From Candidatus Dadabacteria bacterium (lineage in GTDB: Bacteria > Desulfobacterota_D > UBA1144 > Nemesobacterales > Nemesobacteraceae): a stretch of 64,000 nucleotides of DNA. The position numbers were made by a program, and so were the translations under genes. Under the pieces are notes generated by a model, which was not told the DNA's origin, ran no database searches, and saw only the letters and a list, made by a program, of their open reading frames with translations. Shown piece by piece: positions 47,594 to 64,000 of the stretch. The stretch covers positions 62,001 to 126,000 of the forward strand of contig JAJECI010000010.1 of assembly GCA_022822065.1 (NCBI GenBank), written 5' to 3'. How positions within the stretch are numbered: the first letter of the stretch is position 1; every line of letters begins with the position of its first letter.

Positions 47594-48990
47594 GGAGGAA
47601 AAAGGACGCGAAAATGAAATACCTTCCCCAAGTGGCGATCGGCTGGGACACGGCAGCCGCCTTTTCGCTTCTCTGCATCTGCCTGGGCGCGGCGCTCTGC
47701 GCGCTCGCCCTGAGACAAAGAAAAGAAAAACGAAGCGGAGCCGAAACGGTAGAGTTCGCGACGGCTTCTGCGAGGAGAGCCCCGCAAAGAGAAAACGGCG
47801 CGCGGGCAGGAACCATAGAGACCCTAGCGGAGAGTCTCTGGCTCAGAAGCGATGCGGGGCTCGCGGTGCTCTCTGACCGGGAACCCGCGTCCGCACCCGT
47901 CTTCAAAAATCCCAGGACCCGGGCCTTCTGGACGGAGGAGATAGAACCCAACCGCCGCCTCTTTGAGAAAAGGCGCGAACTTGCGGTGATGGAGAGGGTT
48001 CTCCTCGAGCTTGACGAGCACGGCCTCTGCTCAAGCGTGGTCGCCGGGGACGGGAAAAGCGCGTTTGCGCCGACCGCCAGGAGATTTTCGCGCGTCACCC
48101 TGCTTGACCACTCGCTTCGGGCGGCGCGGTGCATGAGGGAAATACACGACTCGCTCTACACCGAGAAGGTCCTCTACGGAAAGCATCTCATCGCGGCTTT
48201 GGCCCACGATATCGGAAAAATGGAGCACCTGCGCCCCGAGGGCGGACGCTACGTGAAGGATGACCACGCGGCGGCATCGGCGAGGGCGCTTAACGCGTGG
48301 ATAATGGAGTGTGGGGGAGAGAGGGCCGCCCTTGAGCTTCGCTTCGTGGTGGACGCCGTCAGGAACCATCACAGAAGCGCGAACTCGCCCGACCCCATAC
48401 TCAAGAACCTAAAAAGGGCGGATACGGCGGCACGGGAGGAGGAATTCTCGGGGGCGCGCAAAAGCCCGCGCACGGCGGCCGCGCCCCCCGACGGGACAAC
48501 GGATGACGAGCCTCCCGAGTGGCTGCTCCGCGACATACCCCGGATACTGAACGACCACGTGGGGCCCGCGATAAACGAGGCGGCGCTCGAGGAGGCTCCC
48601 TTCGCCCGGGCGATCTCCTCCACAAACGGGATCGTCTACGTCTGTCCCCACTACCTTTTCGACGGGGTAAGGGAGCACATGGAGCGGGAGGAGATAGCGG
48701 ACATGAGGTTTTTCGACCCGTCCCGCCCCGCGGAGCTTCGGGCGAAGCTCCTAGTGACAAACTCCCTTAAATCCCGCAACTGGGTGGGCGAAGGGGTCCG
48801 CGACGGCTACTACGCCGCCTTCTGGAACTACGAGCACGAGGGAAAGAAAATAAGAAAAGGCGGCTTCTGGGTGCCCGTTTTCGCTGAAGCGTTCGACGTG
48901 CCGCTTTCCGAGCTTGAAAAAAGGAAAAGCGCCGAGCTTCGCCGGGTTACTTCCGTCGAGCCGTGTCTTGCCCGCGGGCGGAAAAAATAA
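47590..48990 (+). CDS. HD-domain protein (TraI_2/MobH-like relaxase candidate)
   Basis: 466 residues from the ATG at 47590 that overlaps the traD stop; 47614 is an alternative start. A membrane helix (TAAAFSLLCICLGAALCALA) sits near the N-terminus. A metal-binding HD region follows: LLDHSLRAARCMREIHDS, then HLIAALAHDIGKMEHLRPEG and VRNHHRSAN. The C-terminal WVGEGVRDGYYAAFWNYEHE resembles the tail of TraI_2 domains of MobH relaxases. If so, it would nick oriT; no other relaxase is in the window. Confidence 0.55.
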   Translation: MRRKKDAKMKYLPQVAIGWDTAAAFSLLCICLGAALCALALRQRKEKRSGAETVEFATASARRAPQRENGARAGTIETLAESLWLRSDAGLAVLSDREPASAPVFKNPRTRAFWTEEIEPNRRLFEKRRELAVMERVLLELDEHGLCSSVVAGDGKSAFAPTARRFSRVTLLDHSLRAARCMREIHDSLYTEKVLYGKHLIAALAHDIGKMEHLRPEGGRYVKDDHAAASARALNAWIMECGGERAALELRFVVDAVRNHHRSANSPDPILKNLKRADTAAREEEFSGARKSPRTAAAPPDGTTDDEPPEWLLRDIPRILNDHVGPAINEAALEEAPFARAISSTNGIVYVCPHYLFDGVREHMEREEIADMRFFDPSRPAELRAKLLVTNSLKSRNWVGEGVRDGYYAAFWNYEHEGKKIRKGGFWVPVFAEAFDVPLSELEKRKSAELRRVTSVEPCLARGRKK

Positions 48991-49051
48991 ATAAACTCAA
49001 CCGGGCGGCATCTGTCCGTTCAAAAAAATCATACAGATGGAGGTTATACAG

Positions 49052-49471
49052 ATGAACAACGAAAACGGAAAAGAAAAGAACGTTACGCTGACTATTGACC
49101 GCGTGCCGTACGGGCAACTCGAGCGCGAAGCGCGCAAGAGGGCGCTCGGGCCGGGAGAGTATCTCGAGATGCTGATAGAGATGGACCGCATCTCTAACTG
49201 CGCGGAGGACCTGGAGGAAGAAACGGCCGTCTCCATATCGGAGAGACACTACTCCCTTCTTCGAGAAGACGCGGAGGAAACCGGTTTCGAGGTTGAGGAT
49301 ATCGCCGAGATGATAATAGGGCTTTCGGCGGAAATGCTTCCGCGGAAACCTCTCAGCAGAGAGAAATTCGACGCCGTGGTCAAGGCGTGGGGAGGCGTCG
49401 ATTTCCCGGTCCTGAAAAAACCGGGGAACGCCCGGCGGCGCAGAAACTCTCTTGATAAGCCGTCGTCCTAG
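49052..49471 (+). CDS. Small hypothetical protein in the tra operon
   Basis: 139 residues from the ATG at 49052, chosen because GGAGG stands 8 bases upstream; an ATG at 49037 is less likely. Soluble, strongly charged, with helical REARKRALGPGEYLEMLIEM and a second domain around SISERHYSLLREDAEETGFE. The first half resembles a ribbon-helix-helix-like layout, but no family is recognised. It lies between the HD gene and traA. Confidence 0.55.
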   Translation: MNNENGKEKNVTLTIDRVPYGQLEREARKRALGPGEYLEMLIEMDRISNCAEDLEEETAVSISERHYSLLREDAEETGFEVEDIAEMIIGLSAEMLPRKPLSREKFDAVVKAWGGVDFPVLKKPGNARRRRNSLDKPSS

Positions 49472-49627
49472 GGACGGAAGAGACGGGGAGGCTTCCGCTT
49501 CCCCGAAGAGGCTTAACGACAGAATCGACATAACGGAATAAAACAGACGGACACATGCCGCATTCGCAATCAGGCAGACAGCAATGTCTGCGACACTCGA
49601 AAACCACTTAATAAGGAGGAAGCTAAG

Positions 49628-49942
49628 ATGAAAACATCCGAAGCAAAGTTTCCCCGCGTCGCCGCGGCCGCGCTTTTAACGGTGGTCGCGCTGGCGCTTT
49701 TTTTCCCGGACACTGCGCTCGGGGGAACCACGGGCACGGAGTTCCAGAGCATCTACGACAAGGTGAAGGGATGGTCCACCGGCTACCTGGGAAGGCTGCT
49801 CGCTCTCTGCACGTTCATAATAGGTCTCGGGGCTTCCATAATGCGCCAGACCCTCTTCCCCGCGCTTACGGGGATAGGGGTGGCGCTCGTGGTCTCCCTC
49901 GGCCCGTCGCTCATAGAGGGAATAGCCACGGGGACGTTCTAG
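49628..49942 (+). CDS. traA: Conjugative pilin (TraA-like)
   Basis: 104 residues. A long leader with a hydrophobic segment (AAAALLTVVALALFFPDTALG) then two more membrane helices (LGRLLALCTFIIGLGASIM and ALTGIGVALVVSLGPSLIEG), the VirB2/TraA prepilin layout. AAGGAGGAAGCTAAG precedes the ATG. First gene of the F-type transfer order A-L-E-K-B-V-C, whose order here is canonical. Confidence 0.75.
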   Translation: MKTSEAKFPRVAAAALLTVVALALFFPDTALGGTTGTEFQSIYDKVKGWSTGYLGRLLALCTFIIGLGASIMRQTLFPALTGIGVALVVSLGPSLIEGIATGTF

Positions 49943-50209
49943 ATGAGAACGAGGATCCCGAGATACATAGACGACCCCCCGCAGATATTCTGGTGGGAGA
50001 TCGACGAGGTGGCGCTCTTCAGCGGAGCGTTCGTGGTCGGGGCCCTCGGGGGCCAGACGCTCGGAGGGCTGCTCGGGGGATTTGCCCTCTCCTGGCTGCT
50101 CGAGCGCCTTAAGTCCGGGCGGGGAAGCGCCTTTCTGGTTCACCTCGCCTACTGGTACGGACTCTCGGCGGTGAGGCCCGAGAGCCACAGGGAGAGGTTC
50201 TTTGAGTGA
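49943..50209 (+). CDS. traL: TraL-like pilus assembly protein
   Basis: 88 residues. It opens RIPRYIDDPPQIFWWEIDEV, the TraL family start, and has a membrane pair around VALFSGAFVVGALGGQTLGG. Its ATG follows directly on the traA stop. TraL is a small inner-membrane protein (VirB3-like) needed for pilus assembly. Confidence 0.85.
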   Translation: MRTRIPRYIDDPPQIFWWEIDEVALFSGAFVVGALGGQTLGGLLGGFALSWLLERLKSGRGSAFLVHLAYWYGLSAVRPESHRERFFE

Positions 50210-50796
50210 TGCTTATACGCACCTTCCGCGAGAGATGGCTTAACCTCGCCCGGGAAAACGGGCTGCTGCGCTTCGCCGTGGGAGCGCTCTGCGTGACGGT
50301 CGCGCTTCAGGGCTGCCACATGAAAAAGCTCTCCGAGCGCACCACCGTGCACGTTCACGTGCCCGAGTACATGCAGAAGGGCTTCACCGTGAGCGCGGCG
50401 GGGGCGGCCTCGCTCGCCTACACAGAGCAGTGGGCGCTCAGCCTCCTTCCCTTCGTTGCGTCCTTCACCGCGGAAACCGTGGATTTCAACGTGAGGCAGT
50501 TCCTCCTCTACGTACACCCCGAGAGCTACGACCCCATCTCGGGATTCCTGCTTGAAAAATCAAAGGAGATAAAGGCAAGCGGGGTCGCCCAGGCGTTCTT
50601 CCCGAAAACGGTGGCCATAGAGGAGGAAGGGGCGGTCGTGGCGGTGAGCGGACGGCGCACCAGGGTGGTGGGAAACGTGGTGACCGACCAGAGGGAGGTC
50701 GTCTACAGGGTCCGCTTCGAGCTCGGGGCGAACAACCGCCCGCTCGTAACCGGACTTATCGAAAACGAAGGAGTGGAGGGAGCGGATGAACACTGA
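50209..50796 (+). CDS. traE: TraE-like (VirB8-type) inner-membrane protein
   Basis: 195 residues from the ATG at 50209, overlapping the traL stop (TGATG). One N-terminal membrane helix (LRFAVGALCVTVALQGCHM) and a periplasmic domain with VDFNVRQFLLYVHPESYDPI and RVVGNVVTDQREVVYRV. TraE is the F-type VirB8-like scaffold. Overlaps traK by 11 bases. Confidence 0.85.
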   Translation: MLIRTFRERWLNLARENGLLRFAVGALCVTVALQGCHMKKLSERTTVHVHVPEYMQKGFTVSAAGAASLAYTEQWALSLLPFVASFTAETVDFNVRQFLLYVHPESYDPISGFLLEKSKEIKASGVAQAFFPKTVAIEEEGAVVAVSGRRTRVVGNVVTDQREVVYRVRFELGANNRPLVTGLIENEGVEGADEH

Positions 50797-51496
50797 CCCC
50801 GCCCCGCGCGTCCTCGCCGTCCTGGCCGCAGCGTTTTTCGCTTTCGCCGCTACGGCGGCCGCTCTCACGATAGACCTCGGGAAAACCCGCGAGGGGGAAC
50901 CGGTATCGCTCGGCGTATCGCGCACCGACACGAACAGGATCGAGCTTCCAGAAACCATAATAAACGCTTTTTCCTCAGACGGGTCGATTGACGTGAAGAT
51001 AATAGGGCGCTCTGCGCTCGTTAGAACGGAAGACCCGGCGGAACTCATAATCCTGACCGAAAAAAGAAGGCTCACGCTGCTGCTCTCGCCCGAGGACAGG
51101 CCCTCGCGCACCGTCATAATGAGGGACGAGGCCGCGCCGCCCCCCGGCCCGCCCGGGGAGGCGGCGGAAGGCCCGAAAGCCCTTCCCTACGAAAAGGCCA
51201 TAACGGACCTCGTTCTCGCGCTCGCCACAGACGGCTCCCCGGTCGGGGAGATTTCAGAAAAGGAAGAGAAGTTCACGGGTTCGCTTCGCATCGCGCGCCG
51301 CGGAGAGATGGCGTCACCCCCTTTTTCCGCCTCGCTCTACGTCATCAGGAACTCAGGCTCCAAAACCGCCGCGCTCACAGAAAGGATGTTTCTTTCCGGC
51401 CCCGAAATCGTGGCCGTGGGAATGGAGAGCGACCGGCTTGAGCCGGGGGAGTCGGGAAGGATTTTCGTGGTCACGAAAAGGGAGCCTCGGCGATGA
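50786..51496 (+). CDS. traK: TraK-like secretin-type protein
   Basis: 236 residues with a signal peptide (VLAVLAAAFFAFAATAAALT). Beta-rich mature part with typical TraK segments SLGVSRTDTNRIELPETIIN and a C-terminal LEPGESGRIFVV. TraK (VirB9-like) forms the outer-membrane core complex with TraV and TraB. A Pro-rich segment in the middle matches a linker. Overlaps traB by 4 bases. Confidence 0.85.
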   Translation: MNTDPAPRVLAVLAAAFFAFAATAAALTIDLGKTREGEPVSLGVSRTDTNRIELPETIINAFSSDGSIDVKIIGRSALVRTEDPAELIILTEKRRLTLLLSPEDRPSRTVIMRDEAAPPPGPPGEAAEGPKALPYEKAITDLVLALATDGSPVGEISEKEEKFTGSLRIARRGEMASPPFSASLYVIRNSGSKTAALTERMFLSGPEIVAVGMESDRLEPGESGRIFVVTKREPRR

Positions 51497-52650
51497 TCGG
51501 GAAGATCCGGAAAATCTACGCCGAAAGAAAACGCCAGACGCTCGCCGCTGCGGCTCTGCTGTCCGCCTTTTTCGTCGTGGCCCTCTTTCTTCTGCTGCTC
51601 GGCGGGGAGGACAAGGGGCTTCTTGGGGAGAAAAAGCCGCGGGGGAGCATAAAGATCCTGCGGGGAGTTGACCTCGCGCGGGAGAAATGGCGCATAGAGG
51701 GGGAAAAGCGCCTCGGGATGATAGAGACCGAGCAGAGAGAGATAAAAAAGGAACTTGAGGCCGTCTCCGCCGCCCTTGGAGAGCTTGGGAAAGAATCTTC
51801 CGAACCATACCCCTACCCCCCTCCGCCGGCCGGGGACGAGACCTCACCCGAAGCGGGATTCCCTCCCGCTTCCCCACTGCCGGGCGCGGCGGAAACGCCG
51901 CCCGTGCCCCCGAAGACAAAAAGCCCGATACGGGTTTTCTCCCCCCTCGGGGGTGCCCCGGCCGAGGGGCCCGCCGCAGAACCCGCCCTGCTTAACTGGA
52001 TTCCCTCGGGAAGCTTCGTTCCCGGGGTGCTTCTAAGCGGCCTTGACGCTCCGACCGCGACCGCCGCCGCGCGAAACCCCCACCCCGTGCTGATACATCT
52101 CGCGGAACCTTCCCGCCTGCCCGGCCTGCGGCGCATGGACATAGCGCGCTGCCACGTCACGGGAGCGGGCTACGGGCAGCTCGCGAGCGAGAGGGCGTAC
52201 GTAAGGCTCGAGAGAATAGCCTGCGTGCTTCGCTCGGGGGACGCGATAGACACCAGAATAAAGGGATACGTGGCCGGGGAGGACGGAAAGACGGGGATCC
52301 GCGGAAGGCTCGTCTCGAAACAGGGAAAGATGCTCTCGCGCGGAATCCTAGCCGGATTCGCCTCGGGGTTCGGCGGGGCGGTCGAGAGCTCGAACTCGAC
52401 CTCCGGAGTGGTCGCGGGGGGAACGTTCACCGTGAGTTCAAGGAGCTCGGAGGATCTCGTCAAGACGGGAATCGGAGGAGGAGCGGGGGAGGCAGGAAGG
52501 CTTCTCGCCGAATACTACCTGAAGCTCGCCGAGGAGGTGTTTCCGGTAATAGAGATAGACGCCGGGCGCCGAGTCGACGTGATCATAACCGAGGGGACGG
52601 AACTTGTTCCGAGAAAAACCGCCTACGCCGCGGGGGAAAAAGAGAAATGA
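51493..52650 (+). CDS. traB: TraB-like (VirB10-type) channel protein
   Basis: 385 residues. One N-terminal membrane helix (TLAAAALLSAFFVVALFLLL), a coiled coil (MIETEQREIKKELEAVSAAL), a Pro-rich linker, and the VirB10 beta-barrel from about 170 (NWIPSGSFVPGVLLSGLDAP, ILAGFASGFGGAVESSNSTS). The protein spans both membranes and gates the pore. Overlaps neighbours by 4 bases on both sides. Confidence 0.92.
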   Translation: MIGKIRKIYAERKRQTLAAAALLSAFFVVALFLLLLGGEDKGLLGEKKPRGSIKILRGVDLAREKWRIEGEKRLGMIETEQREIKKELEAVSAALGELGKESSEPYPYPPPPAGDETSPEAGFPPASPLPGAAETPPVPPKTKSPIRVFSPLGGAPAEGPAAEPALLNWIPSGSFVPGVLLSGLDAPTATAAARNPHPVLIHLAEPSRLPGLRRMDIARCHVTGAGYGQLASERAYVRLERIACVLRSGDAIDTRIKGYVAGEDGKTGIRGRLVSKQGKMLSRGILAGFASGFGGAVESSNSTSGVVAGGTFTVSSRSSEDLVKTGIGGGAGEAGRLLAEYYLKLAEEVFPVIEIDAGRRVDVIITEGTELVPRKTAYAAGEKEK

Positions 52651-53168
52651 GAAGATTAGCCGCCCTGCTTGTGTTCTGCTCCCTGCTTCTTGCCGGCTGC
52701 GCCGGCGGGTCGTCCCGCTACGGCTGCCCGGTCGAGGAGGGCTACTCGTGCAAAAGCGTCTCCGAGGTTTACGCCGAGGCGGCTTCCGGCCGGGGAAGCG
52801 GGGAGCGCCCTTTCCCAAAAGCCCTAAAGAACGAAAAAACCGTGCGCCCGGCCGCGTGGAGAAGGTTCCTGAAAGGCGGGGCGTTCCGCGCGGGAAAAAA
52901 CGCCCGCAGGCGGGCGGGGGAGAGAAAGGAAGAGCGAAAGGCCGCGCGGGCCGAAGAGTCGATACCCGTCTACGTTCCCCCTCCCACGATACGCCTCTGG
53001 ATAGCCCCGTGGCAGGACGCCCGGGGCGTCTTTCACTCAGGCAGGTACGTCTACGCGGTCTCGGGCCGGGGACGGTGGACAATTGACGGGAGGACCGTTC
53101 CGCTCGGGGGGCGGCCGGAAGATTATCCCGAGGAAATACGCCTTCTCGAAGCGGGGAGGGCCCCCTGA
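52647..53168 (+). CDS. traV: TraV-like outer-membrane lipoprotein
   Basis: 173 residues. Lipoprotein signal with LLLAGCAGGSSR, the Cys being the lipidation site. The mature start YGCPVEEGYSCKSVSEVY has the two extra cysteines typical of TraV. A Lys/Arg-rich middle and a C-terminal IRLWIAPWQDARGVFHSG segment follow. It would join TraK and TraB in the outer-membrane ring (VirB7-like). Confidence 0.88.
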   Translation: MRRLAALLVFCSLLLAGCAGGSSRYGCPVEEGYSCKSVSEVYAEAASGRGSGERPFPKALKNEKTVRPAAWRRFLKGGAFRAGKNARRRAGERKEERKAARAEESIPVYVPPPTIRLWIAPWQDARGVFHSGRYVYAVSGRGRWTIDGRTVPLGGRPEDYPEEIRLLEAGRAP

Positions 53169-55600
53169 TGGGCGTCGCGAAGGAGCGCCTCCGGGGGCTT
53201 GCCGAGAGGGATTCGCTTTCCCGCTACCTTCCCTACGTGGCCTGGGAGGACGGGATGTACGTGCTGGCCGACGCGTCGTGCGGCTTTGCGTGGGAGATAA
53301 ACCCCCTTCTTTTCGCCGGGGAGGACACGAAGAGGATCCTGGGCGGGATGCTCGGCGACCGGGTGCTCCCGCCCGGGACGTCGGTAAAGTTCCACGTGTT
53401 CGCCTCCGAGCTCATATCCCCGCTTTTCCCCGAGGAAGAGGCGGTGCAGGGCAGGATCTGCCAAGAGATCGCCGCCGAGAGAAAGCGGCTCTACACACTC
53501 GGGATGCGGGAGAGGGTCGGGGTTCCCGCTAGGGACTTCCGCTTCCTGGTGTCGATAAGGATTCCCCCGGGCCCCGGCAATAACAAGGTCGCTGAACCCG
53601 CGTGGGAGAAGCACACGGAGGACGCCCGCAAGCTCGGGGCAAACGTGGCCGGGATCCTAAGCTCCGCGCAGCTTTACCCGCGCGACCTGCCCCCGGCGCA
53701 GCTGATCCTCATTCTCCGCGAGGCGCTTAACCCCGATACGCGCTGGTATGACGACCCCTACTACCTCGGGCGCCCGGGAGGCGGCCCCTACGACCCGGAC
53801 AAGGAAATAAGAAGCCAGGTAATAGACCGCGAGACCGAAATAGAGGTGCGGGCCGGGGAGATTTCGCTCGGGGACGCGCGCCTCCGGGGATACTCCCCTG
53901 CGTCCATGCCCGAGCACTTCTCCCTTGATGAGTTCCACGAGCTGCTGGGAGACCCCCTGCGGGGGCTCTCGCAGGTGCCCGCGTACTTCTTCCTCCAGGC
54001 GGGGTTCGTGATCCCCGAGAGAAAGAAAGCCTCCGAGGTGAAGACCAAGGCCGTCATGGTGAAGCAGCAGAGCTTCGGCCTTGTGACGAGATTCATACCG
54101 AGGCTAAGGAGAAAGGCCGAGAATTTCGATTTTCTGGTTAACGCACTTGAGGACGAGGGGCTGGTCACGGGGTCCCTAAGCCTCTTTCTCAGGACCCGAA
54201 GCACGGAGGAGGCGGAGAAGGTAAAGGAGATGGTTACGGGAATATGGAGGGCGCGGAACTTCGATCTCCGCGAGGAGAGATACATAGTGCTCCCCCTTCT
54301 CCTCGAGAGCCTCCCGCTCGGCGGGGAACCCGCCCTCGCGAAGCTTCTCAGGCGGAACTCGACCATGCAGAGCTCGGCCGGGGCCTCCCTTGTCCCCGTG
54401 ATGTCCGACTGGAAGGGGAGCGGCTCGGGGCCGCTTACCCTGATATCTAGGAGGGGACAGATAATGAAGCTTGATCTTTTCAGCTCGGCTTCCAACTACA
54501 ACTGCGCGGTGTTCGCCCAGTCGGGCTCAGGAAAGTCCTTTCTCACCTCGGACATGATCACCGGGTATCTCTCCCAGGGGGCGCGGGTGTTCGTGATAGA
54601 CATAGGGCGCTCCTACGAGAAGCTCTGCGGCCTGGTGGGCGGGGAGTTCGTGGTGTTTGACGAGAAAAGCGGGATCTCCCTTAACCCCTTCTCCCGCATA
54701 ACGGACATAGACGAGGACATGGAGCTGCTTAAGCCCCTTTTCGCCCAGATGGCCTCGCCGTCCGAGAAAATAGGGGACCTCGGGAAATCGCTTCTCGAGG
54801 AAGCGATAAAGAAGGCGTGGGATAAGCGCGGCCCCGAGGCCCGGATAGACGACGTCGTTGAGGCCCTGTCCTCTATCTCCGACCCGCACAGAAGGTCCGA
54901 GGACCTGGCCCACATGCTCTACGCCTATTCCTCCCGCGGGCAGTACGGGCGCTTTTTCGAGGGACCGTCAAACCTCTCCTTCGAGAAAGACCTTAACGTG
55001 CTTGAGCTAGAGGAACTCAAGTCAAAGCCCGAGCTTCAGACCGTCGTGGTGCTCATGATCATCTGGCACATAGAGAGGGAGATGTACCTCGGCGGCCGCG
55101 AGCGGCGCAAGCTCGCGATAATAGACGAGGCGTGGGACCTTCTCGGCGGGGGATTCTCGGGCGAGTTCATAGCGCACGGCTACCGCAGGGCGAGGAAGTA
55201 TAACGGCGCCTTCGTCTCCGTAACCCAGAGCCTGCTTGACTTCTACAGGGCGGGGGATCTCGGGGAGTCGGTGCTTGAGAACTCGGCCTGGATGTTCATG
55301 CTCCGCCAGAAGGGGGAAAGCGTGGAGGAGATAAAAAGGGGAGGGAAGCTTCTCCTCGGGGATTACTTCGGGGAGCTTGTCTCTACGCTCTCGACGCGCC
55401 CCGGGGAGTTCTCAGAGGTGTTCATATACAACAGCGAGCGCGGCATGGGCCTCGGCAGGTTAGTTGTGGATCCTTTTTCCTACTGGACCTACACCACGAA
55501 CCCGGACGACGTCTCCCTTCTAAACGGCTTCATATCGGAGGGGATGGAAGTGCACGAGGCGATAGAGCGCTGCGTCGAGACCTCTAGGGGGAGGAGATGA
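53168..55600 (+). CDS. traC: TraC-like (VirB4-type) secretion ATPase
   Basis: 810 residues, normal family size. Walker A FAQSGSGKSFLTSD at about 447-460 and Walker B KLAIIDEAWDLLGGG at about 648-662. The N-terminal domain shows YVAWEDGMYVLADASCGFAW. It powers pilus assembly and substrate transfer in the cytoplasm. Start ATG overlaps the last base of traV; the end overlaps trbI. Confidence 0.95.
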   Translation: MGVAKERLRGLAERDSLSRYLPYVAWEDGMYVLADASCGFAWEINPLLFAGEDTKRILGGMLGDRVLPPGTSVKFHVFASELISPLFPEEEAVQGRICQEIAAERKRLYTLGMRERVGVPARDFRFLVSIRIPPGPGNNKVAEPAWEKHTEDARKLGANVAGILSSAQLYPRDLPPAQLILILREALNPDTRWYDDPYYLGRPGGGPYDPDKEIRSQVIDRETEIEVRAGEISLGDARLRGYSPASMPEHFSLDEFHELLGDPLRGLSQVPAYFFLQAGFVIPERKKASEVKTKAVMVKQQSFGLVTRFIPRLRRKAENFDFLVNALEDEGLVTGSLSLFLRTRSTEEAEKVKEMVTGIWRARNFDLREERYIVLPLLLESLPLGGEPALAKLLRRNSTMQSSAGASLVPVMSDWKGSGSGPLTLISRRGQIMKLDLFSSASNYNCAVFAQSGSGKSFLTSDMITGYLSQGARVFVIDIGRSYEKLCGLVGGEFVVFDEKSGISLNPFSRITDIDEDMELLKPLFAQMASPSEKIGDLGKSLLEEAIKKAWDKRGPEARIDDVVEALSSISDPHRRSEDLAHMLYAYSSRGQYGRFFEGPSNLSFEKDLNVLELEELKSKPELQTVVVLMIIWHIEREMYLGGRERRKLAIIDEAWDLLGGGFSGEFIAHGYRRARKYNGAFVSVTQSLLDFYRAGDLGESVLENSAWMFMLRQKGESVEEIKRGGKLLLGDYFGELVSTLSTRPGEFSEVFIYNSERGMGLGRLVVDPFSYWTYTTNPDDVSLLNGFISEGMEVHEAIERCVETSRGRR

Positions 55601-57027: not shown

Positions 57028-57128
57028 TTCCCTGAATTGTACTTCAACGGGCAATATTTTTCCTTCTCCACCTTTCAAATATAGAACTCAGTTATAATTT
57101 GTTCTTGAAAACAGATGTTCAAATTATT

Positions 57129-59270
57129 ATGAGCAAACCGATTCAAAGAGAAATCAGTCAGTCATTCCGTCCCCGTGCCAGAATATTGCGTCTGCTTGGA
57201 GACGAACTGATTGCCAATGATCGTCTGGCAATTTTTGAACTGGTTAAAAACGCCTATGATGCAGACGCAAATGAAGTCGTTGTCCGTTTGGATCTGAACA
57301 CAGACAGAGACTCGATGATAACCGTTTCTGATGACGGAGAAGGAATGAACCTTGATGTCCTGAAGTCAGTCTGGCTCGTACCTGGCGATGAACATCGTCG
57401 AAAACAAAGACACGACAAAAAAAGAACTCCTATCCACAACCGTCTTCCTCTCGGGGAGAAAGGACTTGGACGTTTTGCGGTTCACAAGCTTGGAAACCGG
57501 ATAAGCATGGTAACCCGTTCCAAGAATTGCAAAGAATACGTAGTAGAAATAGATTGGAACAGTCTGATTGAAAAGCCATTTCTGGATAAAGCTCCTGTGA
57601 AAATAATCGCCCGGAATCCAAAAGTGTTTACTAAAAAGAAGACGGGAACCCGGATTGAAATCCGGGAGTTGCGCAAAACCGACTGGACCCGCGGCAAAGT
57701 GAGGCGACTTTATAATCAAATCACATCCATATGTTCCCCGTTCCGGGAATCCGGAAGCTTCAACGCTGTTCTGAAAATTCCCGGTCATGAGACATGGATA
57801 TCTGACCTGCCGGATATATATGAAATCCTGAACCGTGCAATATGGAAATTTTCATTCAAGCTGGACAAAAAAGGGGGGTTTGACTGGTGTTATGAATTTC
57901 GACAGGTGCCGGGGTTTAAACTGGTTCCCAGAACAGTCAAGAAATCTGGTGACTTGCTGAAACTTCCTCCTGAATCTGAAGACGGCAAAAAGACCGAAAA
58001 GGTGGTTGCCAGTAAGTCCACGACTCGAGGTATCGGCCCTGTAAGCGGTGAGTTTTATGTGTATGACCGAGAAAAGGAAGTTATTAGAAAATTCACAGAT
58101 GTTCAGTTGCTGACCAGTTATCTGGATGAAACGGGTGGCGTGCGAGTCTATCGAGATGGAATCAGAGTATATAACTACGGAGAACAGGGAGACGACTGGC
58201 TTGGTCTTGATCTTCGTCGTGTAAATTTTCCTACACGCCGAATCAGCCGCAACATCATTCTTGGAGCAATACACCTGTCACTGGAGCATTCTTCGGGACT
58301 TGTTGAAAAAACCAACAGAGAAGGTTTTGTCGAGAACGACTCCTGCAGCCAGCTGCGCCGCATTGTCCTTGGTGCTCTTGCGGCCTTAGAAGAGGAACGT
58401 CAGCTAGACAAGGAACGAATCAGAAAACTCACGGGAAAACCTGAAGACTCCACTATGGACAGGATCGAAAAATTAATAAAAGAGCTTGAACATGCACTTG
58501 ACCGACGGGGAGTGAAAAAAGAATTCAAGCCCTATCTCAGCAGGATTGAAAAGAACTATCGGGGCATGCAGGAAATCCTGCTCTCCGCAGGCATGTCAGG
58601 GCTGAATCTGGCCGTAGTGTTCCACGAAGTGGAACGAGGAGTACGGACAATTCATCAGGTTATAACTGAAGGAGCAGATATAGATGAAGCCGCCCGCCAG
58701 ACTCAAGAACTAATGAGAATTCTTGACGGTTTTTCGGCATTGCTCCGGCGGGACAGCAAAAAACTGCATGAGGCCAGCAAACTTATCAGGATGGCACGAC
58801 AGAACAGCGCACTCCGGCTTCGCCACCACCATATTGCTCTTAACTGCCCGTTACTGGACAGCAAAGAAGAAGGTTTCAGTTCCCGTTTCGCATTCGGACT
58901 TGTACTAGGTGCATTAGGCAATCTCATTGACAATTCTCTTTACTGGCTGAGGGTTCGATGGCACGACACTCCATCTAAGAAGAGCCCTCACCAAAGAAAG
59001 CTTTACATCGGCCTATCAAGAGATTTTGAAGCCGGACCAGCTATCGTGGTCGCAGACAACGGACCCGGATTCCAAGGCGATGATCCTCAGAATCTGGTGC
59101 GTCCGTTTTTCACTCGAAAACCCGACGGCATGGGGCTTGGCCTGTATTATGCTAATTTAGCGATGGAGTTAAACGGCGGGCAACTCGTATTTCCTCAACT
59201 AGGAGAAGTAGAGCTGCCCGATGGGTTTGACGGTGCGGTAATGGCCCTGATATTTAAGGAAGCAGAATGA
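57129..59270 (+). CDS. Double-GHKL sensor kinase-like protein
   Basis: 713 residues from the ATG at 57129 (frame open from a TTG at 57099). N-terminal HSP90/MORC-like GHKL domain: FELVKNAYDADANEV (N box, about 37-51), VSDDGEGMN (G1) and GEKGLGRFAVHKLGN (G2). A long middle follows. Then an H-box-like AVVFHEVERGVRTIHQVI, and a second GHKL domain: GALGNLIDNSLYWL, VVADNGPGF and GMGLGLYYANLAMEL. So it looks like a histidine kinase whose sensor is itself an ATPase. No membrane helices, so cytoplasmic. It overlaps the receiver gene by ATGA. Lower GC than tra, so probably acquired. Confidence 0.8.
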   Translation: MSKPIQREISQSFRPRARILRLLGDELIANDRLAIFELVKNAYDADANEVVVRLDLNTDRDSMITVSDDGEGMNLDVLKSVWLVPGDEHRRKQRHDKKRTPIHNRLPLGEKGLGRFAVHKLGNRISMVTRSKNCKEYVVEIDWNSLIEKPFLDKAPVKIIARNPKVFTKKKTGTRIEIRELRKTDWTRGKVRRLYNQITSICSPFRESGSFNAVLKIPGHETWISDLPDIYEILNRAIWKFSFKLDKKGGFDWCYEFRQVPGFKLVPRTVKKSGDLLKLPPESEDGKKTEKVVASKSTTRGIGPVSGEFYVYDREKEVIRKFTDVQLLTSYLDETGGVRVYRDGIRVYNYGEQGDDWLGLDLRRVNFPTRRISRNIILGAIHLSLEHSSGLVEKTNREGFVENDSCSQLRRIVLGALAALEEERQLDKERIRKLTGKPEDSTMDRIEKLIKELEHALDRRGVKKEFKPYLSRIEKNYRGMQEILLSAGMSGLNLAVVFHEVERGVRTIHQVITEGADIDEAARQTQELMRILDGFSALLRRDSKKLHEASKLIRMARQNSALRLRHHHIALNCPLLDSKEEGFSSRFAFGLVLGALGNLIDNSLYWLRVRWHDTPSKKSPHQRKLYIGLSRDFEAGPAIVVADNGPGFQGDDPQNLVRPFFTRKPDGMGLGLYYANLAMELNGGQLVFPQLGEVELPDGFDGAVMALIFKEAE

Positions 59271-60535
59271 TACGACCAGCGCCAAGAATTATAACTATTG
59301 ATGATAATCAGGAAGATCTGGATGAGTTGACTGAAGGCATTAATCGTTACGGAGCAGCATGTCTGCCATTCCATTTTACAGGCGATACAGAGAATATTAG
59401 TTCATGCCCTCACGCAAGAGTAATATTCGCTGATCTTCACCTGAATGAAACCGGGCCCGGCGGTGATAGCGCACAACATTTCAGTACCATAGGAAGTTTG
59501 ATCTTGGACACAATCAAACCTTCTGGCCCTTATCTCCTGATTCTTTGGACACAATATCCTGAAGATGGAAAGTCTCTGCGCGAGTTTCTTGATGAAAGAC
59601 TGCCGACAGATACGCCGAAGCCGCTCGACGTTATAGCAATTGACAAAAAAGTTCTTCGCGAAAAGACAGAAGGAAATTCTCTGAATATTGAAAAACTGGT
59701 TGAAGAGATAACCAATTCATTTGACCGGTTTCCACAGATTACTGCATTACTCAACTGGGAAGAGATGGTGTTAGGTGCTGCGGGAGACACTGTTTCTTCA
59801 ATTTTTGACCTAGTGGGAAAACAGAACAGAGACAAAGAAGTCAGCAGGATACTTGCTCATTTGGCTGTTGGTGCAGTTGGCAGAAACCATGTTGAAAACG
59901 ACCGTTTTCATGCAGTGAATGAAGCACTGTTACCCATTCTGACTGACCGTATTGCTTCCATGCATTTGAAAAATGATGACCGAGATATCTGGCAAAAAGC
60001 GTTTGACAGTTCGGATATCGAAAGCTCTCTCTCACTGGAAAAAGCCGCCAGACTTAATCGTCTGGTCCAGATTGATCCTGCAACTGACAACGGAGCCAGA
60101 AACGGTTCCGTTATCGCTTTACCTGAGGAGTTTTCAAAGAAGAATTTTGAAAAGCAATTCGGCTTCAAGCAACAAAAGACAGCAGAGAAACAGTTTTTCT
60201 GTAAGAACCCAAGAAAAAAACTCAGTTGGGTTCTGATACAGTGCCAAGCTGTCTGCGACTACGCGCAGAACAGACCAGGAACGCTGCCGTACTACCTTGG
60301 TCTTGAACTACCATACCCATTAAGAGGACACCCAAAAGCATTATGGGTCAGTCCACCTTTCGAAAAAGATGGTTCCACTGTCTATTTATACGTGAATGCC
60401 CGCTTTCCGGTTTCTCTGCCACCAAAATTTGCGGAACGGAAAAATGTTCGCTACCGCCTACGCGAACAACTGCTCAATGATCTTATATATCATATCCACA
60501 GCCACGGAGCTCGTCCCGGAATGCTTCGGTTTTAG
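59267..60535 (+). CDS. Receiver-domain protein with unknown C-terminal domain
   Basis: 422 residues. The N-terminal receiver has all key residues: RIITIDDNQ (Asp 12, Asp 13), VIFADLHLNETGPGG (phospho-acceptor Asp 56), LLILWTQYPED (Thr 95) and VIAIDKKVL (Lys 127 or 128). From about 150 to the end the protein has no DNA-binding domain that I can see; it includes SQVLAHLAVGAVGRNH-type helices and a beta-rich tail (GLELPYPLRGHPKALWVSPP). It starts inside the kinase stop codon, so the two are translationally coupled. The C-terminal part is probably the output and may be an effector. Confidence 0.75.
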   Translation: MIRPAPRIITIDDNQEDLDELTEGINRYGAACLPFHFTGDTENISSCPHARVIFADLHLNETGPGGDSAQHFSTIGSLILDTIKPSGPYLLILWTQYPEDGKSLREFLDERLPTDTPKPLDVIAIDKKVLREKTEGNSLNIEKLVEEITNSFDRFPQITALLNWEEMVLGAAGDTVSSIFDLVGKQNRDKEVSRILAHLAVGAVGRNHVENDRFHAVNEALLPILTDRIASMHLKNDDRDIWQKAFDSSDIESSLSLEKAARLNRLVQIDPATDNGARNGSVIALPEEFSKKNFEKQFGFKQQKTAEKQFFCKNPRKKLSWVLIQCQAVCDYAQNRPGTLPYYLGLELPYPLRGHPKALWVSPPFEKDGSTVYLYVNARFPVSLPPKFAERKNVRYRLREQLLNDLIYHIHSHGARPGMLRF

Positions 60536-60662
60536 GAAACTAAATCTTCAGGCAATAGTGTCAGAGGAATCTCTTTAACTTGTATTCCTCATGTAAAAAT
60601 CTTGTCAATATTTAAAAACTATTACTGATTCTAAGAGTTAGGGATTCTTGATAAATAATTAG

Positions 60663-60696
60663 GGGAATTATGTATTTGGGTTGACAAACCTTTCTT
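60663..60696 (+). repeat. Left terminal inverted repeat of the IS1595 transposon
   Basis: 34 bases identical to the reverse complement of 63925-63958. The target duplication AATAATTA stands at 60654-60661. Confidence 0.93.
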
Positions 60697-60709
60697 TCCC
60701 CGCTAATCT

Positions 60710-60811
60710 TCATTCGTGTTCTTCTTCAGAATCATCTTTCAAATAAACATCTTTTTCGGGCGGACTCCCAAGCAGAATTGAGAAAACATCGTCAATATCA
60801 AAATCCGCCAT
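60710..60811 (-). CDS. Tiny acidic ORF at the 3' end of the transposon passenger operon
   Basis: 33 residues from the ATG at 60811, with AGGAG 9 bases upstream: MADFDIDDVFSILLGSPPEK then a strongly acidic tail DDSEEEHE. A 46-codon form starting at a TTG (60850) has GGAGG 8 bases upstream, so the true start is unsure. It follows the methylase stop by 13-52 bases, same strand. Too short for family assignment; the charge suggests a protein-binding or DNA-mimic role, which is speculation. Confidence 0.45.
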   Translation of the reverse strand: MADFDIDDVFSILLGSPPEKDVYLKDDSEEEHE

Positions 60812-60863
60812 ACTTGGAATCTCCTGACCTTTTTCGTCCTCGCTAGGCAATAGTCCTACCTCC

Positions 60864-62012
60864 TTATTTCTCGATCAAGAACAAAAATTCCCTATTTGGT
60901 TCATTCGCATCTCGCAACCATTCATTAGTCCATTTCATTTTAGACATAACATTTCTTTGATAATGAATCTCAACTATATCTACCAGTCTGCCAAATGCCT
61001 TTATAGACTCATTCAGTTCATAAGCAGTAGCTCTGCCTCCTGAACTATAGGAAAGTATAACCCACCTGCAAGGGGTTTCTTTTAACAACTGTTTTATACT
61101 CTCAACTGCTATGAACTTGCCGTCTCCATTTTTGCGAAACTCCTCAAATACCGATGCTGAAACAGTGTCAGAAGTGTCTTTTCTTCTTAACGCTTTCCCG
61201 AAAAGATCCGGCTGGTCATTTTTGCAGATAGTTTCCCACAAATGATAGTAAGACGCATACCTAACCCGGGAGGGAGGCATTTTCTCATTGTTTGAACCGT
61301 AGGGAGGATCATAATAAGCAAGTTCAGCGTCTATTGTGGGAAGAATATCAAAGATATTGCCCTGCAATACCTCGTTTTCCGCAGAATTTACCCAAACTCT
61401 GGGAACCTCAAGCGTCAAATCCTTAAATGACCTCGGAGACCAGTTCTTCAAATAAGCGACATGATGCCCAAGCGTGTTATCTACCTTGTCGAGTGCCAAG
61501 ATCAGACTGGACAATGCTACGCTTCTCTCTATCTCATCAAGATTAGATTCGTCGATTTCCCTTCTTATCGCATCAAGTTTTCTTGTATTCTTTTTCTGAA
61601 AGGGTTTTTTAGTGCCATCCGCTTGAATTGCATTGTATTCCCCCTCCGCTACTTCACCCCCGTAGTTTTCTGTAAACCATCCGTCTTCAGGTGGCAATGA
61701 ATTGAGATGGTCTATTAGAGGCTTGTACTCGCATGGATTGCTCTTGTTTTGCAAATAGCATTTGCCAAAAGTGTAAGACCAATCCGCTATGTCGTTAGAA
61801 ATTACTTTATATCCAGATTGTACACACGCTTGACCAACACGAGTAGAACCAGAAAAGCCATCAAAAACGGTTTTCGCTCCAGTTCTCTCTATCAGTCTGA
61901 TTATGTGTGGCAACAATTTCAATTTAGAACCTATATACTTCACGCCTTCAGTCTTCAGTTTTTTGTCATTGCCGTTGCCACAAAACAGTTGCCGTTGTAT
62001 CATCCTGCTCAT
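60864..62012 (-). CDS. Adenine-specific DNA methyltransferase (D12 class), transposon passenger
   Basis: 382 residues. Motif I TVFDGFSGSTRVGQACVQSG at about 48-67, catalytic motif IV AYYDPPYGSNNE at about 232-243, and VKYIGSKLKLLPHIIRLI at the start as in D12/Dam-type methylases. It methylates N6-adenine in its target to protect it from the co-encoded nuclease. The ATG overlaps the restriction enzyme stop (ATGA), so both are translated together. It lies between the inverted repeats of the IS1595 element. Confidence 0.88.
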   Translation of the reverse strand: MSRMIQRQLFCGNGNDKKLKTEGVKYIGSKLKLLPHIIRLIERTGAKTVFDGFSGSTRVGQACVQSGYKVISNDIADWSYTFGKCYLQNKSNPCEYKPLIDHLNSLPPEDGWFTENYGGEVAEGEYNAIQADGTKKPFQKKNTRKLDAIRREIDESNLDEIERSVALSSLILALDKVDNTLGHHVAYLKNWSPRSFKDLTLEVPRVWVNSAENEVLQGNIFDILPTIDAELAYYDPPYGSNNEKMPPSRVRYASYYHLWETICKNDQPDLFGKALRRKDTSDTVSASVFEEFRKNGDGKFIAVESIKQLLKETPCRWVILSYSSGGRATAYELNESIKAFGRLVDIVEIHYQRNVMSKMKWTNEWLRDANEPNREFLFLIEK

Positions 62013-62869
62013 TGTGTCAATTTGCTCTTTAAGTTCTTAATATCTTCTTTGACCTGTTCAAGTGCTTTTTGGTGTCCCGCAACCGATGAAACCAGTGCGT
62101 TAGAGAACAATTCCACTAACACTAAATTGTGGGAATAGTCTATCCACCCATTTGTTATGCTATCAAAGTAGTTCAACCCATTTTTCGTGTGTGTCCATAA
62201 TCCTCGCTGTAGAGCATTAGCGGTTGCATCTCCGTAACGCACTTCGCAAATGTAAGAATCGTCGGAGTCATAGAACCGGAAAACAGGATGCTTCCTGCCC
62301 TTACCTTTCGATTCACGGGATATTCTGACTGTTCTCGTTGCTGCTTTCTCATAATCGAATACTAGGATGTTACACCTGTTTGATTTTTCATCATATATAA
62401 GTGGCAGTACGTTAATGCTCCGAAAATCGGAAAAGGCAGAATCGGAAAAAATCCCCGCAATTTTATCTGTATCGGAGATGACGCTACCTTCCTTCTCTAG
62501 TCTTGGGAACATCTTGAAGTTCTTATCTGTTGATAATTGAAGCGGGCCATCTCCATACGCCTTCAAGCTCACGGGAAACTCTTGTTTGTCTATCTCGTTT
62601 ACTATCTTAATGTCTTCTTCATGTGATTTAGCTCTATACAAGTCTTTGCCAACATGAGTAGAGTGAAAATCATACATGTACTGGTTTATAAACTCTGATA
62701 TGGCTATTTCGGCTAAATCTCCATGCGTCTTGTTTCCAATGAGCCTCATAGTAAATATGTTGCTCAGTGTAGTAGTTATCAATTCGGGATTTTTGCTTAT
62801 CAGAAGTTTTAATCTTGTTGTGAAATCTTTGTATGGACTGATCCCACTTGACTTGTAAGAGGTAGGCAT
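62009..62869 (-). CDS. Probable Type II restriction endonuclease, transposon passenger
   Basis: 286 residues, not matched to a named enzyme. A candidate PD-(D/E)XK core is SHEEDIKIV (Glu 84-85, Asp 86) with EFPVSLKAYGDGP (Lys 103 in S-x-K). A C-terminal helical region ends KEDIKNLKSKLTQ. Its identity rests mainly on being the translationally coupled partner of an adenine methylase in the same transposon. The 68 bases between it and the transposase stop contain no gene. Confidence 0.65.
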   Translation of the reverse strand: MPTSYKSSGISPYKDFTTRLKLLISKNPELITTTLSNIFTMRLIGNKTHGDLAEIAISEFINQYMYDFHSTHVGKDLYRAKSHEEDIKIVNEIDKQEFPVSLKAYGDGPLQLSTDKNFKMFPRLEKEGSVISDTDKIAGIFSDSAFSDFRSINVLPLIYDEKSNRCNILVFDYEKAATRTVRISRESKGKGRKHPVFRFYDSDDSYICEVRYGDATANALQRGLWTHTKNGLNYFDSITNGWIDYSHNLVLVELFSNALVSSVAGHQKALEQVKEDIKNLKSKLTQ

Positions 62870-62937
62870 ATTGTTGCAAAAACTATATAGAAATCTTGCT
62901 TCTCAAGATTATAGACTACCTCGACAGATTGAGCAAT

Positions 62938-63885
62938 TCACAGTTGCGAGACCACCTCCCTGTAACTGATTCTCTTTGTTCCTATCAATCCGGCAATCGT
63001 AGCGTTTATCTGGTCCATCATGTCGAGCTGGCGGACGTTGATACAGTTTGAGAACTCGTCTATGTACTTCTGAAGATGCTTGGCGGACATTCTGTGATAG
63101 ATCCCGTAGTATCTACGCTTGAGCAACGCCCAAAAGGACTCCACGCCGTTTGTGTGAGCTTCCCCTCTCACGTATTCCCCGATGGAGTGATAAACAGTTT
63201 CATGCTTGAACCCGTGCTTCTCAATCCCCGAGTAGCTTCTATGCTCATCGGTGCAAACGGTCGTACCTTTGGCCACGGTGTCAATGATTATCCAGTGAAG
63301 CGTTTGAGCGTCAGTGCTTTCCACACGTAAAGCCTTTACTTTCTTGTCCTTCCTATCTTTGACGGCAATGACCGCTTCCTTTCCGACCGGACCCCGCCCC
63401 TTCTTGGTCTTCTTGTCTTTGTGCTTGTTGCGCTCAAGTCCGCCAAGATAAGCTTCGTCAATCTCGACTACTTGTCCGAAAAACTGGCTTGCGTTGTTAA
63501 CCCATCCCTGACGGATTCTGTGAGCAAGGAACCATGCCGACTTCTGCTGTACGCCTATATCGTTTCCAAGTTTCGTACTGGATACGCCTTTGAGAAAAGT
63601 TGACATTAGATAAACAGCCATCATCCACTTGCGATATTTGATATGGCTTCCCTCCATCAAGGTTCCGGTACGGACGCTGAAATACTTACGGCAACCCTTA
63701 CACCAGTAAGGCATCTTCTTATGAGAAGAAACGCTGGTTTCAACAGAACCGCAATGCGGACAACTCCTTTGCCCATGCCACCTCCGCTCCTCTAGGTATG
63801 CCATCGCCTTTTCTTCCGTATCGAACCGCTCCATGAACTCGTAGAGACTGACTCTTTCTCTTTTTGACTTGGGTTTCTGTCCCAT
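62938..63885 (-). CDS. IS1595-family transposase (ISXO2-like)
   Basis: 315 residues. The N-terminal zinc ribbon has Cys 42/45 and 62/65 (CPHCGS, CKGCRKYF). The ISXO2-like catalytic domain shows VVEIDEAYLGGLERNKHKDK (first Asp), TTVCTDEHRSYSGI (second Asp) and HTNGVESFWALLKRRYYGIY (third acidic/Asn position). It moves the element by recognising the 34 bp ends. Intact, with ATG supported by its position just inside the right inverted repeat. Confidence 0.93.
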   Translation of the reverse strand: MGQKPKSKRERVSLYEFMERFDTEEKAMAYLEERRWHGQRSCPHCGSVETSVSSHKKMPYWCKGCRKYFSVRTGTLMEGSHIKYRKWMMAVYLMSTFLKGVSSTKLGNDIGVQQKSAWFLAHRIRQGWVNNASQFFGQVVEIDEAYLGGLERNKHKDKKTKKGRGPVGKEAVIAVKDRKDKKVKALRVESTDAQTLHWIIIDTVAKGTTVCTDEHRSYSGIEKHGFKHETVYHSIGEYVRGEAHTNGVESFWALLKRRYYGIYHRMSAKHLQKYIDEFSNCINVRQLDMMDQINATIAGLIGTKRISYREVVSQL

Positions 63886-63924
63886 TGAACTAACCTTCTT
63901 AACTGCCTATAATACTACATGGTT

Positions 63925-63958
63925 AAGAAAGGTTTGTCAACCCAAATACATAATTCCC
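63925..63958 (-). repeat. Right terminal inverted repeat of the IS1595 transposon
   Basis: 34 bases, reverse complement of 60663-60696. The second copy of the target duplication follows at 63959-63966. The remaining 34 bases of the window hold no gene. Confidence 0.93.
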
Positions 63959-64000
63959 AATAATTACAACTGGCTGGCATCTTTCTTTTTTTTTATCATT

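What the first reader, a model, noticed from the sequence alone, without database searches (positions are those of the whole stretch)
60654..63966. Complete IS1595 transposon that mobilises a restriction-modification system
34 bp perfect inverted repeats plus an exact 8 bp target duplication bracket a transposase, an adenine methylase, a coupled nuclease-like gene and a tiny ORF. IS1595 members with passenger genes are known as a class, but a self-contained RM cargo in one, apparently intact, is worth documenting: an RM system that hops on its own can explain patchy RM distribution and is selfish by nature.
Basis: partly seen in the sequence, partly recalled or inferred. Interest (0 to 1): 0.8.

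Follow-up and report, generated by a model that had tools for sequence, protein, structure and literature searches.

The report
Jumping gene carrying restriction-modification system
A complete IS1595-type jumping element in this bacterial genome carries its own DNA-cutting and DNA-protecting enzyme pair, and related elements in several unrelated bacterial families carry similar DNA-modifying or cutting enzymes, so this kind of element looks like a repeated carrier of such systems.

Summary
Window 60662-63958 is a 3.3-kb IS1595-family element: 34-bp perfect inverted repeats, an exact 8-bp AATAATTA target duplication (one unpaired G at the left tip), an intact transposase, a Type II pair (REase overlapping a D12-class adenine methylase by 4 bp) and a 46-aa ORF. 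The REase has no Pfam match, but hits a PADLOC Type II REase model (447 bits), and its pLDDT-78 model aligns best with PD-(D/E)XK nucleases. One copy in the genome. It sits at the 3' end of a vsr gene whose stop codon lies in the duplication.

The R-M pair also occurs without the transposase in distant bacteria (6 of 6 loci), so it is captured cargo. It is not a one-off: 15 of 26 examined IS1595 transposases closest to this one have a DNA methylase beside them (8 of 15 in the genus, 7 of 11 outside the phylum), some as R-M pairs or methylase-nuclease fusions inside elements with 8-bp duplications. The tiny ORF belongs to this IS1595 subgroup, not to the R-M system. IS1595 passengers and R-M on transposons are known; recurrent R-M cargo in this lineage I did not find in print. 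Mobility and addiction are inferred.

The parts
60654..60661 (.). left target-site duplication AATAATTA
60662..60696 (.). left (tnp-distal) end: one unpaired G (60662) followed by the 34-bp inverted repeat 60663-60696
60710..60850 (-). 46-aa acidic ORF (16 D/E, 3 K/R); member of a small family found in sister IS1595 elements
60864..62012 (-). D12-class N6-adenine DNA methyltransferase, 382 aa, with motif I (FDGFSG) and motif IV (DPPY) present (motif names recalled)
   Evidence: PF02086 2.7e-25; PDLC03342 MTase_II 546 bits; sequence
62009..62869 (-). Type II restriction endonuclease, 286 aa, PD-(D/E)XK fold predicted; candidate active site D86...S101-x-K103; overlaps the MTase start by 4 bp
   Evidence: PDLC03568 447 bits; AF2 model pLDDT 78; VIA-align best rows NaeI, HinP1I, SwaI, MspI, HincII, EcoRV; invariant residues
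62938..63885 (-). IS1595-family transposase, 315 aa, zinc ribbon plus DDE-type domain; D143, D213, N246, E249, K256 invariant in the 12 aligned sequences
63912..63940 (-). promoter-like site: TTGACA inside the right inverted repeat, 17 nt, TAGTAT; would drive tnp-REase-MTase-ORF. The number of such sites in 60600-64000 (7) is no higher than in shuffles (mean 6.7)
63925..63958 (.). right (tnp-proximal) 34-bp inverted repeat
63959..63966 (.). right target-site duplication AATAATTA; 63964-63966 is the TAA stop codon (minus strand) of the flanking vsr gene

Best explanation
It is an IS1595-family 'transporter IS' (an IS with passenger genes) that has captured a Type II restriction-modification system. 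The transposase would act on the 34-bp ends and insert the whole 3.3 kb with an 8-bp target duplication. A sigma-70-like promoter whose -35 box lies in the tnp-proximal end probably transcribes tnp, REase, MTase and a small element-specific gene as one unit. The MTase would methylate and the REase cut the same unknown site, so a cell that holds the element restricts foreign DNA and may be harmed if it loses the element (addiction), which would stabilise the transposon. The element is one of a lineage in which DNA methylases, often with a nuclease as partner or fused domain, are recurrent and exchangeable cargo. Shown: anatomy, gene identities, complete ends and duplication, recurrence. Inferred: transposition, operon transcription, enzyme activity and specificity, addiction.
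For: Ends and duplication. Transposase family and invariant catalytic-type residues. MTase and REase. Nuclease fold: 48 of the 50 rows shown are restriction enzymes, Holliday-junction resolvases or one homing nuclease, though many rows are repeat entries of HincII, EcoRV and Hjc. R-M pair in the same order without the transposase in L002-L007. Recurrence: MTase beside 15 of 26 examined transposases with profile E <= 1e-100, 8 of 15 in the genus and 7 of 11 outside the phylum. In 13 genus genomes 7 of 36 MTase loci (PF01555, PF02086) lie within 2.5 kb of the 15 full-length transposases against 0.15 expected (G010 and G011 share one identical element, so at most 6 independent). Of the 20 elements whose 8-bp duplication was confirmed, 11 carry an MTase. 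Tree: sister elements with different cargo.
Against: No second copy and no empty site, so no direct evidence of movement. The left tip has one unpaired base. Three further close relatives, found and examined after the pattern was proposed, showed no MTase (0 of 3). MTase absence was tested by Pfam for most, but not all, ORFs of the negative elements. REase precedes MTase and no controller gene is seen, which is awkward for establishment in a naive host; the transposase-free relatives have the same order. The promoter-like sites are no more than chance for the region as a whole.
Confidence: 0.85

Rival explanations
1. The R-M pair is a chance passenger: an IS1595 element trapped it once, it has no role for the element, and methylase neighbours in relatives reflect IS1595 insertion into defence islands rather than cargo.
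For: The element lies beside a defence cluster (Vsr, C5 MTase, AspBHI-like and Eco29kI REases, an N6_N4 MTase), and sister elements L041, L042 and L043 show no MTase.
Against: In 11 elements the MTase lies between the matched ends and the 8-bp duplication, so it moved with the element. The link recurs in six unnamed bacterial families, the genus's own included, with several MTase classes. Some MTase starts overlap the tnp stop by 4 bp (L054, L084, L087, L053).
Confidence: 0.3
2. The methylase mainly serves the transposon itself: methylation of its ends or promoter regulates transposase (as Dam does for some ISs, recalled), and the REase is secondary.
For: Cargo with an MTase and no recognised nuclease exists (L054, L091, L092), and tnp-MTase overlaps suggest coupled translation.
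Against: Methylase classes differ (D12, N6_N4, C5, HsdM-like), so no common methylated site in the ends is likely. In most MTase elements a nuclease partner or domain is matched, some weakly.
Confidence: 0.12
3. The element is a dead remnant: fixed, immobile, R-M inactive.
For: One copy only, and one extra G at the left tip.
Against: All four ORFs are open, ends are 34/34 identical, and the target duplication is perfect, as expected of a recent insertion.
Confidence: 0.1

Closest known systems
IS1595 family and its tIS members with passenger genes (e.g. MTnSag1/tISSag10, tISCpe8)
   Same: IS1595 DDE transposase, terminal inverted repeats (25 bp in those two), 8-bp target duplication, passenger genes between the ends (passages of PMC5704250)
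   Different: Those two are mobilisable elements (IMEs), tISCpe8 named there as a lincomycin resistance element; here the cargo is a Type II R-M pair plus a small acidic gene. The founding paper (Siguier 2009) was not available to me, so I cannot say which passengers it lists
R-M systems on transposons or IS composites (PaeR7I with IS1/IS5; PluTI; Rhizobium VF39SM R-M)
   Same: R-M genes moved with transposable elements, with addiction proposed to favour joint movement (passages of PMC3031569; PluTI and VF39SM known here only from its text and reference list)
   Different: The structures described there are cointegrates or IS-flanked composites; here one transposase with its own terminal repeats carries the R-M inside the unit
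Published 'IS1 - Site specific DNA methyltransferase' neighbour pair
   Same: A large survey found this pair over-represented (37.2% of the IS1 family's couples; passage of PMC9208149); IS1 is a relative of IS1595 (recalled)
   Different: It is a neighbour statistic for IS1, not IS1595, and the passage says nothing of ends, nuclease partners or cargo
Type I R-M cluster near IS1595 in Acidithiobacillus caldus
   Same: hsdMSR genes reported beside IS200/IS605 and IS1595 (passage of PMC10214660)
   Different: Described as neighbourhood only, not as cargo within IS1595 ends
Type II R-M families PDLC03568 (REase) / PDLC03342 (MTase) in PADLOC
   Same: Very strong matches to both genes (447 and 546 bits)
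   Different: The model says nothing of a transposon; specificity unknown

Membership tests
IS1595 family | IS1595 transposase domain and N-terminal zinc ribbon | tested here: met
   PF12762 1.1e-38, PF12760 8.7e-9; NF033547 179.7 bits against cutoff 75
IS1595 family | terminal inverted repeats plus 8-bp target duplication | tested here: met
   34/34 bp and AATAATTA twice; 8-bp repeats reported for two IS1595-type elements in PMC5704250
IS1595 family | catalytic D-D-N-K type residues (motif recalled) | tested here: met
   D143, D213, N246, K256 invariant in 12 aligned transposases
IS1595 family | transposition activity | not testable with these tools
   needs a bench assay
Type II R-M system | stand-alone DNA MTase | tested here: met
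   PF02086, PDLC03342
Type II R-M system | restriction endonuclease gene adjacent to the MTase | tested here: met
   PDLC03568; the pair is conserved in L002-L007 and L108; nuclease fold
Type II R-M system | same recognition sequence for both enzymes, and activity | not testable with these tools
   specificity unknown; no solved relative by sequence
PD-(D/E)XK nuclease | fold | tested here: met
   best Z 8.3 to NaeI and 48 of 50 rows of this fold class; weak by Foldseek alone, best E 5.4e-3 to SwaI
PD-(D/E)XK nuclease | D...(D/E)xK active site | tested here: inconclusive
   D86 and S101-x-K103 invariant in 9 sequences and on or beside neighbouring strands of the model, but S stands where D/E is usual
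Composite (IS-flanked) transposon | two IS copies flanking the cargo | tested here: not met
   one transposase only, cargo inside one pair of ends

The most novel reading that the evidence does not exclude
A clade of IS1595 transposons, spread over unrelated bacterial families, is a dedicated carrier of self-contained restriction-modification enzymes. Very different methylases, each with a nuclease partner or a fused HNH/Mrr-type domain, have been recruited repeatedly because the R-M function works as an addiction and immunity module for the transposon. One subgroup also keeps a small acidic core protein that may act in transposition or protect the element.
Probability: 0.35. Interest if true: 0.7.

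Novelty: new variant of a known kind. Interest (0 to 1): 0.52.

Why it matters
R-M systems are patchily distributed and much transferred, but a minimal vehicle that can move an entire Type II system is seldom pinned down. Here the vehicle is complete at base level. The same transposase lineage repeatedly holds MTase or R-M cargo in distant bacteria, so 'do R-M genes stabilise their own transposon?' becomes a direct test on units of about 2.3-3.4 kb.

Tried and rejected
Exact end sequence in viral contigs: none. REase in plasmid and phage records: none; whole element against plasmids: none. Empty site: the left flank 58600-60661 has no DNA match in 12 genus relatives. Plasmid relatives of the RR-like neighbour show HATPase-RR-like-vsr-dcm (L104) or HATPase-RR-like-hypothetical-dcm-vsr (L103) without the transposon, but L105 lists no vsr/dcm there, and vsr orientation in L104 differs from the window; three of seven hits were looked at, so this is not a true empty site.

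First structure model of the REase (5 sequences) was poor (pLDDT 52.5) and matched nothing; a 9-sequence alignment gave pLDDT 78, but even then Foldseek alone had no hit below E 5e-3 and only the second aligner gave the clear list.

Considered and rejected: the tiny ORF as R-M controller (relatives sit in elements without R-M); composite transposon (one transposase only).

Limits and dropped rows. In some searches at most 5 candidates per genome were scored (G288 had 85), so the transposase lists are not exhaustive. Of 27 hits with E <= 1e-100 I left out G008:C53 (frameshifted, at a contig edge). Of weaker hits (1e-100 to 1e-60) I counted 18 (3 with MTase: L078, L087, L088) and left out G288 (three further hits), G008:C54, G279:C25, G004:C11, G330:C94 and G009:C13. 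The Pfam scan of negatives took 63 of 70 listed ORFs; 25 of 29 families were shown, none of those a methylase, one a BglII-type REase that I did not trace to its element. L110-L112 were checked only by phmmer with six MTase queries, a screen that had missed the divergent MTase of L089. Elements are those for which I could set bounds, by hand; 5 of 25 showed no identical 8-mer, L042 and L048 because I set bounds wrongly (one search shows 8-bp repeats for both), L047, L091 and L092 truly none found.

Literature: no description of complete R-M cargo in IS1595 elements appeared in the listings of searches nor in passages of the papers opened; two R-M mobility papers were not held, and Siguier 2009 and the ISfinder pages were not seen.
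Full report
Observation. The window is G000:C9:62001-126000 of a 1.63-Mb, 12-contig genome. At 60663-60696 and 63925-63958 lie 34-nt arms, 100% complementary, the only perfect inverted repeat of 20 bp or more in the window. AATAATTA flanks them at 60654-60661 and 63959-63966 and occurs nowhere else in the window on either strand. The left end has one unpaired G at 60662. The ends occur once each in the genome with up to 3 mismatches allowed.

Genes. All four ORFs are on the minus strand in the order transposase, REase, MTase, 46-aa ORF. The transposase carries the IS1595 zinc ribbon and DDE domain; residues D143, D213, N246, E249 and K256 are invariant in the 12 aligned sequences. The MTase is D12-class and matches a PADLOC Type II MTase model at 546 bits. 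The second gene has no Pfam hit up to E 1 but matches a PADLOC Type II REase model at 447 bits over residues 12-282. An AlphaFold2 model from 9 sequences reached pLDDT 78. Of the 50 entries shown by VIA-align 2, 48 are restriction enzymes, Holliday-junction resolvases or one homing nuclease (NaeI Z 8.3, HinP1I and SwaI 6.6, MspI 6.2, HincII 5.5, EcoRV 5.3); two Rep15 entries are not, and many rows are repeats of HincII, EcoRV and Hjc. Z values under 8 are weak singly, this is a second look at Foldseek's own list, and Foldseek's best E was 5.4e-3, to SwaI. D86 and S101-x-K103 are invariant in 9 sequences and lie on or beside neighbouring strands, a plausible variant PD-(D/E)XK site.

Site. The left neighbour genes are a HATPase and an RR-like protein (57099-60535, plus strand), and the right neighbour is vsr on the minus strand, whose TAA stop lies at 63964-63966 inside the right duplication. 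The insertion broke no listed gene. Beyond vsr come a C5 MTase, an AspBHI-like REase, an Eco29kI-type REase and an N6_N4 MTase, and further left TraD/TraG-, TrbI- and TraC-like genes (46241-55600). So the element sits in a defence cluster next to conjugation genes. On a Burkholderia plasmid HATPase, RR-like, vsr and dcm are adjacent without a transposon; a Rhizobium plasmid has the same set with one gene between; an Agrobacterium plasmid lists no vsr or dcm there.

R-M pair without the transposon. Among 100 genomes, the window's own included, 2 match the REase: the own genome and G090, which holds two copies, L002 and L003. Four loci of genome contigs match too (Nitrospinota, Limisphaerales, Thermochlorobacteriaceae and Chrysopegis records; L004-L007). 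All six loci have the MTase next to it and none has this transposase (flanks of L002-L004 are short). In viral contigs one locus (L108) has the pair and three (L106, L107, L109) the REase without a detectable MTase.

Recurrence. In the genus (13 genomes) 15 full-length transposases match the profile at E < 1e-120. Eight have an MTase beside them: the window; G009:C78 with an N6_N4 MTase and a ThaI-type REase interrupted by an assembly gap; G004:C57 with a specificity-like subunit and an MTase with an HSDR_N domain (no 8-bp duplication found); G010:C29, G011:C21, G008:C46 and G012:C19 with MTase-HNH proteins (that of G008 in two frames); and G009:C46 with an MTase cut by the contig edge. Outside the phylum 7 of 11 have one: G065, G330, G304, G167, G370 and two copies in G288; the four without are G372 and three elements of G387 and G389 found later. 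G330 and G167 are MTase-HNH, G304 MTase-Mrr, G370 a Dam-like MTase with a gene weakly matching a REase model. Among 18 weaker relatives 3 have an MTase, one of them (L078) a C5 MTase with an overlapping 242-aa gene of no matched family; the difference 15/26 against 3/18 has Fisher p 0.012, not corrected for relatedness. Background: 36 distinct PF01555/PF02086 loci in the 13 genomes, 7 within 2.5 kb of the 15 transposases against 0.15 expected.

Complete units. Of 25 elements whose bounds I could set, 20 have identical 8-bp flanks; 11 of these 20 carry an MTase (window, L046, L050, L054, L078, L083, L084, L086, L087, L088, L089). L086 is 6.6 kb. Most ends of the close group begin GGG(A/G)AT. 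The tree places the window's transposase with L040 (MTase cargo) and L041 (none found) at 99/97 support, and MTase presence needs at least 9 changes on 41 rows: cargo is exchanged.

Tiny ORF. Profile A2 (three sequences) finds 9 places in 5 of 13 genus genomes at E <= 0.05. Five lie within elements (window, L041, L042, L043, L074), two beside an isolated element end (L071, with a stop in frame, and L073), and for two (L072, and a fragment beside L042) no clear end was found. It is acidic (14-16 D/E against 2-5 K/R in three members). Since those elements differ in cargo, it belongs to the transposon subgroup.

Expression. The right end holds TTGACA-17-TAGTAT upstream of tnp. Of 20 complete elements, 14 have a site of at least 10 of 12 matches at the tnp-proximal end against 5 at the distal end (my count from its rows). 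REase and MTase overlap by 4 bp, and the gap between tnp and REase is 68 bp. Co-transcription is inferred.

Known versus new. IS1595 elements with passenger genes (tIS) and 8-bp duplications are established (passages of PMC5704250). R-M genes on transposons and joint R-M/IS movement are established (passages of PMC3031569 and PMC4176335). A survey reports 'IS1 - Site specific DNA methyltransferase' as an over-represented pair (passage of PMC9208149), and hsdMSR genes near IS1595 are reported in Acidithiobacillus caldus (passage of PMC10214660). I found no report of complete R-M cargo in IS1595 elements, but the key IS1595 paper and ISfinder were out of reach. Hence: new variant of a known kind.

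Noticed in passing
L056:5964-11290 (window 63964 onwards, beyond the window's end): Defence cluster directly right of the element: Vsr, C5 MTase, AspBHI-like/Mrr REase, Eco29kI-type REase and an N6_N4 MTase.
   Followed up: partly
window 57099-60535: HATPase plus RR-like gene pair; plasmid relatives lie next to vsr and dcm in a Burkholderia and a Rhizobium record, but not in an Agrobacterium one, suggesting a vsr/dcm-associated module.
   Followed up: partly
window 46241-55600: Conjugation genes (TraD/TraG-like, TrbI-like, TraC-like), so the element may ride on an integrative conjugative element.
   Followed up: no
L106:3737-4534, L107:2908-3705, L109:945-1742: Homologues (57% identity) of the REase without a detectable MTase in three viral contigs, near genes that look like a phage polymerase and a RecA/UvsX-like protein (by eye): possibly homing-type nucleases.
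   Followed up: no
window 60710-60850; L041:8202-8342; L042:5859-6002; L074:5805-5921: Small acidic protein family (IPDMS..FDDV...L.G.PP) tied to one IS1595 subgroup; window copy without Pfam or NCBIfam match, three copies without a PHROG match better than E 0.16.
   Followed up: partly
L041:7230-7888, L110:4954-5468, L052:7361-7603: Recurring alternative cargo: small coiled-coil-like proteins ending in a hydrophobic stretch, in L041 and L110 beside a similar 90-aa protein; perhaps another two-gene system (seen by eye).
   Followed up: no
L086:1436-8049: A 6.6-kb IS1595 element with a perfect 8-bp duplication and an MTase-HNH protein; the rest of its cargo is unexamined.
   Followed up: no
G010:C29 / G011:C21 (L049, L050): The same MTase-HNH element (100% identical MTase and transposase) in two genomes of the genus, consistent with recent transfer; the G010 contig ends just past the transposase.
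   Followed up: partly
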